From: Isoperla grammatica
Taxonomy: Eukaryota > Arthropoda > Insecta > Plecoptera > Perlodidae
Direction of reading: 5' to 3'
Length of the DNA stretch: 64,000 nucleotides
Assembly: GCA_945910005.1 (NCBI GenBank)
Contig: OX246749.1
Span: 27,456,843 to 27,520,842 of the forward strand
Shown here piece by piece: positions 726 through 64,000 of this stretch (within the stretch, counting starts at the first letter, position 1; each line of letters begins with the position of its first letter). Below the pieces are notes generated by a model. The model did not search any database. It was not told the origin of the DNA and saw nothing but the letters and a program-made list of their open reading frames with translations. Both the position numbers and the translations under genes were made by a program.

Positions 726-1058
726 CTAACAGTAATACGCCCACAGGAAGACTGTGAAGCGATAGACCCAGGGCGACCACAGCAGCAACACAGGCCGGAT
801 AGCAGACCCGCTGTTCTCCGCCCTCTGCCTCAGTGAGTGTACTGACGTGGTATTGGTACTGATATAGGATAGGGGATTCTCCGTGATCCTGCAGTCCCGC
901 GGCCCCGTGGACCCAGCTAACTCGTCACGGATCCAGGCCAACACGAGAACACCACTGGTGCTGGCCCAATCGAGGCTGCGCTCCACCTTCTTCATTTGAA
1001 TCTTGACCGCTCTGGCCTTGTGCTTGTCCGACATCACCGCCTTCAGCAGCCCCCCCAG
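726..1058 (-). CDS. M1 aminopeptidase terminal exon with hydrophobic C-terminus
   Basis: The acceptor GTTGCAG ends at 1,059. The exon starts LGGLLKAVMSDKHKAR and includes a V-E-R-S-x-D-W-A helix and an AWIRDEL segment that match the last helices of M1 aminopeptidases. A tail of about 55 residues follows, ending in a Trp- and Leu-rich hydrophobic stretch just before the stop at 726-728. Small residues NSGSA precede it, so a GPI-anchor signal is plausible, although an Arg interrupts the hydrophobic part. The acceptor and first roughly 20 nt are the core of the adjacent 64-bp array. Confidence 0.82.
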   Translation of the reverse strand: MGGLLKAVMSDKHKARAVKIQMKKVERSLDWASTSGVLVLAWIRDELAGSTGPRDCRITENPLSYISTNTTSVHSLRQRAENSGSAIRPVLLLWSPWVYRFTVFLWAYYC

Positions 1059-4000
1059 CTGCAACCACACAGGGGGTGAATGAAGCCCAGGGGAGGGAAT
1101 ACTCTCTCAGCAGCCCCCCCAGCTGCAACCACACAGGGGGTGAGTGAAGCCTAGGGGAGGGAATACTCTCTCAGCAGCCCCCCCAGCTGCAACCACACAG
1201 GGGGTGAGTGAAGCCCAGGGGAGGGAATACTCTCTCAGCAGCCCCCCCAGCTGCAACCACACCGGGGGTGAGTGAAGCCCAGGGGAGGGAATACTCTCTT
1301 AGCAGCCCCCCCAACTGCAACCACACAGGGGGTGAGTGAAGCCCAGGGGAGGGAATACTCTCTCAGCAGCCCCCCCCCCCAGCTGCAACCACACAGGGGG
1401 TGAGTGAAGCCCAGGGGAGGGAATACTCTCTCAGCAGCCCCCCCAGCTGCAACCACACAGGGGGTGAGTGAAGCCCAGGGGAGGGAATGCTCTCTCAGCA
1501 GCCCCCCCAGCTGCAACCACACAGGGGGTGAGTGAAGCCCAGGGGAGGCAATACTCTCTCAGCAGCCCCCCCAGCTGCAACCACACAGGGGGTGAGTGAA
1601 GCCCAGGGGAGGGAATACTCTCTCAGCAGCCCCCCCACCTGCAACCACACAGGGGGTGAGTGAAGCCCAGGGGAGGGAATACTCTCTCAGCAGCCCCCCC
1701 AGCTGCCACCACACAGGGGGTGAGTGAAGCCCAGGGGAGGGAATACTCTCTCAGCAGCCCCCCCAGCTGCCACCACACAGGGGGTGAGTGAAGCCCAGGG
1801 GAGGGAATACTCTCTGCAGCCCCCCCAGCTGCCACCACACAGGGGGTGAGTGAAGCCCAGGGGAGGAAATACTCTCTGCAGCCCCCCCAGCTGCAACCAC
1901 ACAGGGGGTGAGTGAAGCCCAGGGGAGGAAATACTCTCTCAGCAGCCCAGCTGCAACCACACAGGGGGTGAGTGAAGCCCAGGGGAGGGAATACTCTCTG
2001 CAGCCCCCCCACCTGCAACCACAGGTGAAGCCCAGATAAGTCCAGGGGCCGGATTCACAAGAGGTCCTAGCTTAGGACAGGTCCTAAGGTTGGAATTCAT
2101 AGTCGGCCCCTACACCTAGGGGCACCCATTGTTGCTATGGATTTGTTTTGTTTATGGGAAATAACATGCAAACAATTGTTACCTTGGTAACAATGGGCGC
2201 CCCTAGGTGTAGGGGCCGACTATGAATTCCAACCTAAGTCCTGCTGTACCGTATGTGCTATTATAAATCTATGGTAGGCCTACTACACGGCCCAAGTGAT
2301 AGCTACTTTCGTGGAAATCACAGTGAACTTGAAATATTGCAAGGCGGTGTTTTAAAGCTTAGTGTTTTGTTTTCTGATACCTCCACTTTCTAGAAACAGA
2401 GAAATGTGTATGTCAAGGTAAGTAAACGATATTTATTTATGTTAACACTTCGAAGTCATAGACGTATTGCCACCATCTTTGAAGAAAGATAAGACCAACT
2501 CAGACAGTGCCTAAATTTAGGTTTCAAGTGTTTGTTATTTACTAGGGTTTCTTAGCAACGCCGAGTCGAGGCCATGTACAGGTCCGTATAAGCCAATGGC
2601 GTGCCACAATCTAGTGGTCCTAAAGTAAGGCCAGGCCTAAGTTTATACTTATTGTGAATCCGGCCCCAGGGGACCAACGTAGCAACGTATCAATACCTTC
2701 GTTAGATGTCTTTCTGTCATGAGTCGGTCTGTGGTTCTTGATAACACGTCGTAGAAACTCCCCATCCTGACACAGAGAGAAACGCGTTAGTCATAAACTA
2801 GGAAAACGCTGTTTGACGCGTCGATAAAGGTGCATTCACAATCTTTACTAGTACTATGGTTTAATGATTAAGACTAAGACAAACCTTAGTCACAGCCATT
2901 CAGAGCGCAGTATTCTCCCTCCCAGCCAATGACAGAAGCCTGTGGCTTAGTCTTAATCATTAAACCATAGTACTAGTAAAGATTGTGAATGCACCTTAAG
3001 CGAGCGCGTCCATATCTACGAACTTTCTAGCGAAAATATCTCAAAGCTAATAAAAACAACAACTATCAACAATTCAAGAATGCGCATTGCAAAATTTGTT
3101 TTACTTTCCACAGCTATTATACTGTCTGAAATTGTTGAATGCTGTGCAATGTGCGTCGCTAAGATTTTTCTTTGTAATTTCGTATAGTGTTTTCGACACA
3201 GTCCGCCACCGTTACTAAGAGTTATTGACAGCAATGGAAATGTAATTTATGCTTCTCTTACGTATCAGATCATGATTAGGTTGATATATTCGTGTCTGGA
3301 CAAAAATTTACTATAATATAGCCACCTCACATTTAACCGTTACTGTGTTTCAGAAACATATTTTCGAGTAAATTTACTGTAACTTTGACCATATTCGTGA
3401 CCGGAACAATCTTTATAAAAATACGGCCACCTCACATTTTCCACCATTTTGCTTCATAAAAATATTGTCTAGTAACTATGGCGTAACTTTGTAACTTTTC
3501 AAACGATTTTGTTACAAAACTATACACCTTCAATCCACATCGAGGCTTGTGCACGGTCCAAATTTCAACTTGATCGGACTTTCCGTTCGACCGCTATCGA
3601 ATGACAAAAAATGAAACAAACGGAACAGAACGAAGTGCCATGAAGGTGTAAGGGAGACGTTTGCTTCGCTCGCTTAATTATAAGTTGTGTTTCGTTCAGT
3701 CATAATTGATTGGAGAGTTCCAAGATGGCGCTGAGTCGCGCAGCGCTGTTACCAGCCGGTCCGGGTAAACTTCGTTTTTCCGCGGTCGTAGTGATCACAG
3801 TTTCGTTCTTGTTGTCTCTCTGGTTGAGTAACGTTTCAGTGGATCCGTGTGCGCGTTATCATTTGCATACGACCAACGTCTCGTTCTCCAGAAGAAGTAA
3901 CATATTTCCTGTGTTAGCATGCAGCGGGCCGCGTCTTCTCGCAGCGGCCAGGCACGCTCCCTGCACCCTGCACACGTGGCCTCGCTAGAAGGTCGCCAAC

Positions 4001-63490: not shown

Positions 63491-64000
63491 CTGTGGGGGA
63501 ACATCAGCACACAGATGACATCTAGTGTGTAACACTATGAAGGCCAGGTTGTACGTGGACATGGGCGGTGTCTCTTGGAACGTGTCCCAGTACCGTCCGA
63601 CGCCGGCCAAGCTGTGGGGGAACATCAGCACACAGATGACATCCAGTGTGTAACACTATGAAGGCCAGGTTGTACGTGGACATGGGCGGTGTCTCTTGGA
63701 ACGTGTCCCAGTACTGTCCGACGCCGGCCAAGCTGTGGGGTAACATCAGCACACAGATGACATCCAGTGTGTAACACTATGAAGGCCAGGTTGTACGTAG
63801 ACATGGGCGGTGTCTCTTGGAACGTGTCCCAGTACCGTCCGACGCCGGCCAAGCTGTGGGGGAACATCAGCACACAGATGACATCCAGTGTGTAACACTA
63901 TGAAGGCCAGGTTGTACGTGGACATGGGCGGTGTCTCTTGGAACGTGTCCCAGTACTGTCCGACGCCGGCCAAGCTGTGGAAGAACATCAGCACACAGAT
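63491..64000. repeat. ~121-bp array derived from the GAMENWG exon's acceptor
   Basis: At least four copies, continuing past the window edge. On the minus strand each has CCCCCACAG or a variant (CTTCCACAG, TACCCCACAG), then about 78 nt of exon start (YWDTFQETPPMSTYNLAF), then intron. The copies lack the ACCCCCGCCGG-type 12-nt stretch present in the true exon. Confidence 0.95.

What the first reader, a model, noticed from the sequence alone, without database searches (positions are those of the whole stretch)
726..64000. Tandem arrays throughout one gene are built from the gene's own exon-intron junctions
Seven arrays (1,059; 10,318 plus 19,043; 20,985; 48,777; 55,848; 62,115; 63,491) have units that contain a functional-looking splice site together with 15-80 nt of the adjoining aminopeptidase exon. 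An eighth (8,431) ends at an acceptor, and a ninth (19,714) resembles an exon interior. Unit lengths differ (59, 64, 72, 77, 79, 101, about 121 bp) and the arrays share no common sequence, so this is not one mobile satellite inserted many times. Something repeatedly amplified exon edges in this gene. Possible causes are replication slippage or microhomology repair at exon borders, or selection for extra splice sites. I know of no described system in which most introns of one gene carry such arrays.
Basis: partly seen in the sequence, partly recalled or inferred. Interest (0 to 1): 0.92.

Follow-up and report, generated by a model that had tools for sequence, protein, structure and literature searches.

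The report
Splice-site arrays in an arthropod gene
In an aminopeptidase gene of an animal that is likely a crustacean or insect, eight exon-intron borders each carry a tandem array of 8 to 33 copies of that border, and sister genes that hold a single copy of three of the repeated units indicate that the arrays likely grew from the gene's own sequence through ordinary DNA-copying errors, with the extra copies predicted to be spliced away.

Summary
In a minus-strand aminopeptidase N-like gene, 8 of 13 tandem arrays (unit at least 30 bp, at least 3 copies) have one end in an exon and one in an intron, against 0.80 expected at random (200,000 placements, maximum 6). These eight have units of 59-121 bp with a splice site and 16-77 nt of exon; exon parts match the real exons at 388 of 403 positions. 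Sister genes on the same chromosome hold a single copy of the 77-, 79- and 82-bp units, so at least these three arrays most simply grew in place from the gene's own junctions. The introns concerned exist in array-poor paralogues (seven of eight could be compared), so the arrays did not create them. The phenomenon is not confined to this gene: exon-edge arrays were confirmed at seven loci in four other families (myosin, kinesin, carboxylesterase, aldehyde dehydrogenase). The same kind of array is known from lancelets as 'mirages'; my paper searches found none in arthropods. Most likely cause: short tandem duplications across splice junctions are tolerated because extra copies fall on the intron side, then expand and homogenise like other minisatellites. 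Genome-wide enrichment at exon edges, RNA use and read support were not established.

The parts
729..1058 (-). last exon (j); its hydrophobic tail looks by eye like a GPI-anchor signal
   Evidence: no Pfam match on its own
1043..2023 (-). 64-bp array, acceptor of exon j: 48 nt intron + 16 nt exon per unit
   Evidence: exon part 16/16 identical to real exon, AG in 16/16 copies
8300..8430 (-). exon i
8433..9354 (-). 115-bp array 3 nt from the acceptor of exon i, intron sequence only
10150..10317 (-). exon h (weak ERAP1_C match)
10282..10813 (-). 59-bp array, acceptor of exon h: 23 nt intron + 36 nt exon per unit
   Evidence: exon part 36/36, AG 9/9
10813..19042 (.). likely LTR-type element inserted inside the 59-bp array (observed only)
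   Evidence: 10813-11490 = 17904-18581 (99.6%), 12137-12599 = 18580-19042 (100%)
19042..19355 (-). far half of the same 59-bp array
19517..19701 (-). exon g (weak ERAP1_C match)
19714..20174 (-). 101-bp array 13 nt from the acceptor of exon g; unit holds a piece that by eye resembles the interior of exon f
20659..20936 (-). exon f (ERAP1_C), no array
21871..22072 (-). exon e
21010..21919 (-). 72-bp array, donor of exon e: 49 nt exon + 23 nt intron per unit
   Evidence: exon part 48/49, GT 12/12
48590..48776 (-). exon d
48734..50742 (-). 101-bp array, acceptor of exon d: 58 nt intron + 43 nt exon per unit
   Evidence: exon part 42/43, AG 20/20
51316..51391 (-). small exon between c and d (edges approximate), no array
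56495..56654 (-). exon c (weak Peptidase_M1 match)
55845..56564 (-). 79-bp array, donor of exon c: 70 nt exon + 9 nt intron per unit
   Evidence: exon part 63/70, GT 9/9; single copy in paralogue L018
61930..62114 (-). exon b (zinc-binding motif HEYAH); one T more in a T run than the sister genes
62069..62693 (-). 77-bp array, acceptor of exon b: 31 nt intron + 46 nt exon per unit
   Evidence: exon part 43/46, AG 8/8; single copy in paralogues L010, L013, L014
63182..63490 (-). exon a (Peptidase_M1)
63402..64000 (-). 121-bp array, acceptor of exon a: 44 nt intron + 77 nt exon per unit; continues to L009:408
   Evidence: exon part 75/77, AG 8/8

Best explanation
These arrays are 'mirage'-type minisatellites: a short segment spanning a splice junction was repeated in tandem, likely by slippage or microhomology repair, into arrays that are predicted to be harmless because splicing would still use the copy next to the exon. 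Shown: in eight arrays the unit is the gene's own junction and the array runs from the exon into the intron; for three of the eight, sister genes hold the unit once; copy numbers differ between sister genes; the 121-mer consensus is identical in seven genes. Inferred: the single copy is the older state; the first step is a tandem duplication at short, often imperfect sequence matches; exon definition picks the exon-proximal splice site, so extra copies are neutral; unequal exchange and conversion then expand and homogenise the array. Duplications that begin in an exon would survive only if they carry a splice site with them, which would explain why survivors sit on exon edges.
For: Eight arrays with one end inside a real exon, exon parts 388/403 identical to that exon, splice dinucleotide intact in 114 of 115 copies of those eight arrays. 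8 of 13 straddle against 0.80 expected, maximum 6 in 200,000 placements. One copy of the 77-mer unit in L010, L013 and L014 (92-95% identical), one of the 79-mer in L018 (86%), one of the 82-mer in L011 (96% over 76 nt), against 4-33 full copies in the expanded genes. Breakpoint in the single-copy genes: intron ACGAGGTTT against exon ACGAGCGAT. Introns present in array-poor paralogues. 121-mer consensus 0/121 different in 7 genes, and only at those genes in the rows listed. Same architecture at seven loci of four other families. At least 10 of 14 unit lengths are not multiples of three, so use of a decoy site would shift the frame.
Against: Neutrality alone does not explain why edges of this gene are hit more often than intron interiors; a bias of duplication towards exon DNA is needed and is untested. 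In 15 loci not chosen for arrays (142 kb, 88 known exons) 2 of 5 arrays straddle an edge against 1.05 expected, P = 0.28: no genome-wide enrichment shown. Exact matches at the breakpoints are only 0-2 nt in the five single-copy sites examined. A single copy could also be a contracted array. Splicing was not observed.
Confidence: 0.75

Rival explanations
1. The arrays are kept by selection: repeated splice sites and exon starts raise the chance that exons are recognised in a long, transposon-filled gene, or create regulated alternative splicing.
For: Arrays sit at eight junctions of one gene, and some are shared by several paralogues; splice dinucleotides are intact in 114 of 115 copies.
Against: Changes at AG/GT 2 observed against 4.9 expected from the other columns, not a clear deficit; of eight C17 genes with an exon b, three carry one full unit and a fourth one partial unit and no array, so the array is dispensable there if those genes work; at least 10 of 14 units would shift the frame.
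Confidence: 0.1
2. The arrays are intermediates of intron gain: tandem duplication of exon sequence with a splice signal makes a new intron.
For: Proposed for lancelet globins (PMC3087553, passages read); three unit types (72 bp and two of 144 bp) keep the frame. Paralogues on C1 and C5 (L026, L027) lack the a/b intron, which leaves open when that intron arose.
Against: Seven of the eight introns beside these arrays occur in at least one array-poor paralogue on C2, C6 or C7 (the one before exon j could not be compared), so they are older than the arrays.
Confidence: 0.04
3. A mobile satellite or transposon deposits arrays at exon edges.
For: Mobile-element genes and long repeats lie in the introns; arrays recur in many genes.
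Against: Each unit is the local junction; the 121-mer was listed only at one exon's flank in seven copies of one gene; sister genes hold three of the units once.
Confidence: 0.03
4. Assembly artefact: looped or misjoined repeats.
For: Reads were not available; one array (L017) borders a run of N.
Against: Copies differ from each other, the 121-mer array recurs in seven genes with different copy numbers, and an LTR-type insertion sits inside one array.
Confidence: 0.05

Closest known systems
Lancelet 'mirages' (Adh3, globins BflGb6 and BflGb9, troponin C, PGBD5; PMC3087553 and PMC3902484, passages read; the original Adh3 paper is not held)
   Same: Minisatellite-like tandem repeats spanning 5' or 3' intron-exon boundaries; units of about 10 to 160 bp; array-border copies less homogenised; reported not to disturb splicing.
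   Different: Likely another phylum (mitochondrial gene order points to Pancrustacea); eight junctions of one gene, against one per gene in the two globins (the number in Adh3 I could not read); 8-33 copies against 3-6 in BflGb6; single-copy sister sites and identity between paralogues seen here.
Internal tandem repeats at exon-intron boundaries of human genes in segmental duplications (PMC2812944, passages read)
   Same: Minisatellite expansion in recently duplicated paralogues, touching exon-intron boundaries.
   Different: Units about 30 bp repeated 4 times on average; half lie within coding exons; those at boundaries are described as forming new introns, which is not seen here.
Intron gain by duplication of AG/GT proto-splice sites (Rogers 1989, cited in PMC3087553; original not read)
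   Same: Duplication carrying splice signals.
   Different: Here seven of eight introns compared are older than the arrays.

Membership tests
Lancelet-type 'mirage' minisatellite | tandem repeat array spanning an authentic intron-exon boundary | tested here: met
   8 arrays; boundaries placed from reading frame and GT/AG, not from RNA
Lancelet-type 'mirage' minisatellite | both 5' and 3' boundaries can be duplicated | tested here: met
   acceptors of a, b, d, h, j and donors of c, e, u
Lancelet-type 'mirage' minisatellite | array-border copy escapes homogenisation | tested here: inconclusive
   of 15 arrays the border copy differs from the consensus more than the locus mean in 11, equally in 1 (c of L013) and less in 3 (a of L018, b of L015, c of L012)
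Lancelet-type 'mirage' minisatellite | length instability between alleles or tissues | not testable with these tools
   only differences between paralogues seen
Lancelet-type 'mirage' minisatellite | normal splicing is kept | not testable with these tools
   no RNA data
Intron gain by tandem duplication | intron absent from relatives without the duplication | tested here: not met
   seven of eight introns present in array-poor paralogues among L019-L022, L024, L028; a/b intron absent from L026 and L027; intron before exon j not comparable
Dispersed satellite or mobile minisatellite | unit occurs at unrelated places | tested here: not met
   tested for the 121-mer only: all rows listed lie at seven C17 aminopeptidase copies
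M1 aminopeptidase (APN-like) | Peptidase_M1 and ERAP1_C domains | tested here: met
   10 of 12 exons submitted singly: a, b, f over the cut-off; c, g, h below it; d, e, i, j no match; best solved relative of exon f 4wz9, AGAP004809-PA

The most novel reading that the evidence does not exclude
The arrays write back into the exons: splice-junction minisatellites act as conversion relays that keep the edges of coding exons identical among gene copies megabases apart. In the most diverged sister gene (L018) the exon-a edge covered by the array is 98.5-100% identical to the other six and its exon-proximal unit equals the array consensus exactly, while the rest of the exon is 84-87% and the next intron 65-70% identical.
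Probability: 0.3. Interest if true: 0.78.

Novelty: new member of a known kind. Interest (0 to 1): 0.62.

Why it matters
In the papers I could search, splice-junction minisatellites of this kind are described from lancelets. Finding them at eight junctions of one likely arthropod gene and in four other gene families suggests a more general way in which genomes multiply their own exon borders without obvious harm. The paralogue set holds the single-copy and the expanded form of the same junction, so birth, growth and spread of an array can be followed base by base, and the question of how the spliceosome picks the right site among 8 to 33 near-identical ones becomes directly testable.

Tried and rejected
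Rejected: new introns, for the seven introns that could be compared; dispersed satellite, for the 121-mer; selection on array splice sites as a clear signal. Tried without result: the 103-bp array beyond the window (L009 7128-10000, all of L041) touches no exon I could identify; no exon between i and j was found. A test of genome-wide enrichment on 15 loci was not significant; two exons in that set (L020 exon i, L021 exon c) were placed by eye after the arrays were known, which favours the hypothesis, and the C17 paralogues were left out of it. Arrays with unit under 30 bp or fewer than 3 copies were left out of all counts. The permutation was not rerun with the split array counted once. The family survey was read by eye from the listings, sees only copies with a long exon part, and for myosin, kinesin, P450, carboxylesterase, AMP-binding and aldehyde dehydrogenase only part of the candidates had been scored (65 of 153, 122 of 208, 92 of 759, 84 of 223, 14 of 123, 12 of 89). 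PMC12783039 and PMC7536079 (passages read) describe other things; PMC3152781 (passages read) reports that repeats with units above 8 bp are much rarer in Daphnia introns than elsewhere in that genome. In one search the unit of L038 was entered as 159 bp; TRF gives 161, which would make 11 of 14 frame-shifting. The species was not identified; Pancrustacea rests on recalled knowledge that trnL2 lies between cox1 and cox2 there.

Full report
What is there. The window is C17:27456843-27520842 of an 874-Mb assembly. It carries, on the minus strand, most of an aminopeptidase N-like gene. Of 10 exons submitted singly, a and b match Peptidase_M1 and f ERAP1_C above the curated cut-off, c, g and h below it, and d, e, i and j not at all; exon f is closest among solved structures to 4wz9, AGAP004809-PA. 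The mitochondrial contig C603 has the order I -Q M nad2 W -C -Y cox1 L2 cox2 K D (nad2 and cox2 named by eye), which by recalled knowledge marks a pancrustacean.

The arrays. Splice sites were placed by reading frame and GT/AG. Five arrays contain an acceptor (j 64, h 59, d 101, b 77, a 121 bp) and three a donor (c 79, e 72 and u 82 bp, the last in L009). Units hold 16-77 nt of exon; exon parts agree with the real exon, in the order j, h, d, b, a, c, e, u, at 16/16, 36/36, 42/43, 43/46, 75/77, 63/70, 48/49 and 65/66 positions, and the AG or GT is intact in 114 of 115 copies. The array near exon i ends 3 nt from the acceptor without exon sequence, and the one near exon g lies 13 nt from it. The two 59-bp arrays look like one, split by an LTR-type insertion whose bordering repeats are 99.6% and 100% identical.

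Chance. In the span 729-70651 there are 13 arrays with unit of at least 30 bp and at least 3 copies (the split array counted twice, two mobile-element arrays included). Eight have one end in an exon and the other in an intron; 200,000 random placements gave a mean of 0.80 and a maximum of 6. Counting also ends within 15 nt of an edge, 10 of 13 against 0.92.

Origin. Sister genes on C17 show junctions without an array. The 77-bp unit occurs once in L010, L013 and L014 (92-95% identical), once in part in L018, and 8, 8, 9 and 16 times in the window, L012, L015 and L017. The 79-bp unit occurs once in L018 (86%) and 9, 13, 18 and 4 full times in the window, L012, L015 and L013. The 82-bp unit occurs once in L011 (96% over 76 nt) and 33 times in the window gene. 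The simplest reading is that these three arrays grew from single-copy junctions; contraction to one copy was not excluded. Exact matches at the breakpoints of the five single-copy sites examined are 0-2 nt; the 77-bp unit shows an imperfect match ACGAGGTTT/ACGAGCGAT, and one carboxylesterase array a longer imperfect one. Seven of the eight introns beside the arrays occur in array-poor paralogues on C2, C6 or C7; the one before exon j could not be compared, and the paralogues L026 and L027 on C1 and C5 lack the a/b intron.

Concerted change. The consensus of the 121-mer is identical in all seven genes that carry it among those fetched, and its 209 matches in the genome come from 8 candidate places, all rows listed being at seven aminopeptidase copies on C17 (the list is cut). 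L018 differs from the other six in the rest of exon a (84-87% identical) and in the next intron (65-70%), yet its array-covered exon part is 98.5-100% identical. Among the other six the contrast is slight: 97-100% against 94-98%. Border copies differ from the consensus more than the locus mean in 11 of 15 arrays, equally in 1 and less in 3. Changes at the splice dinucleotide of array copies number 2 against 4.9 expected, so there is no clear selection on them.

Elsewhere in the genome. I searched eight families (aminopeptidase 47, myosin 85, kinesin 132, chaperonin 50, P450 96, carboxylesterase 88, AMP-binding 18, aldehyde dehydrogenase 13 matches; 529 in all, in most families only part of the candidates scored) and looked by eye for partial repeats of one exon. 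Seven loci stood out, setting aside alternative muscle-myosin exons and a kinesin fragment amplified on C15, and all seven were confirmed after fetching: myosin L029 (155 bp, 2.8 copies), kinesins L037 (152 bp, 7.0), L038 (161 bp, 1.9) and L043 (138 bp, at least 6.7), carboxylesterases L039 (144 bp, 2.1) and L040 (144 bp, at least 3.5), aldehyde dehydrogenase L042 (128 bp, at least 5.9). Six are acceptor arrays and one, L043, a donor array. Chaperonin, P450 and AMP-binding listings showed none. Two other aminopeptidases, L020 and L021, have donor arrays, in L021 with only a few nt of exon. Counter-examples: L021 3921-5069, L024 8875-9255 and L034 6336-6474 lie away from known exons, and in 15 loci not chosen for arrays 2 of 5 arrays straddle an edge against 1.05 expected, P = 0.28. 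A genome-wide preference for exon edges is thus not shown.

Known kinds. Eight paper searches led to lancelet 'mirages' (PMC3087553 and PMC3902484, passages read) and to human repeats at exon-intron boundaries (PMC2812944, passages read), and to no arthropod case in the listings shown; the original Adh3 paper is not held. By anatomy these arrays are mirages. What is new is the likely phylum, the density in one gene, the single-copy sister sites and the identity between paralogues.

How it likely works. A short tandem duplication across a splice junction leaves the exon-proximal copy in place. If exon definition picks that copy, the rest is intron and free to vary. Duplications inside exons would be purged and those across junctions kept. 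This accounts for placement, direction of growth and unit make-up, but it does not by itself explain the excess over intron interiors in this gene; a bias of duplication towards exon DNA is needed and is untested.

On going back to the calls I corrected the number of other families (four), the count of genes with exon b (eight), the border-copy count (11, 1 and 3 of 15), the statement on introns (seven of eight, with L026 and L027 against) and limited the claim of growth from single copies to three arrays; confidence went from 0.76 to 0.75 for that reason.

Noticed in passing
61930-62114: Exon b of the window copy has a run of 7 Ts where the sister genes L012 and L017 have 6, which puts it out of frame with exon c: a recent disabling change or an assembly error.
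   Followed up: partly
G000:C15: A kinesin fragment (profile about 1-94) occurs in several dozen copies on C15, often as inverted pairs about 2 kb apart: likely a captured gene fragment in an amplified element.
   Followed up: no
G000:C1:33475044-33479396: Six tandem myosin exon matches (profile about 377-476) spaced roughly 0.5 to 1.4 kb, likely mutually exclusive exons of a muscle myosin.
   Followed up: no
52300-55128: A 13-bp array of about 215 copies, open in several frames on both strands.
   Followed up: no
39820-40406 and 42734-43325: Inverted 150-bp arrays inside near-identical inverted arms (98.7% over 1.5 kb), probably a mobile element.
   Followed up: no
L009:7128-10000 and all of L041: A 103-bp array of about 52 copies or more upstream of the gene part studied; its unit holds an AG acceptor-like site but no exon was identified.
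   Followed up: partly
21272-22087: The 72-bp array is open in frame with exon e for about nine units, so read-through of its donors would code a repeat.
   Followed up: no
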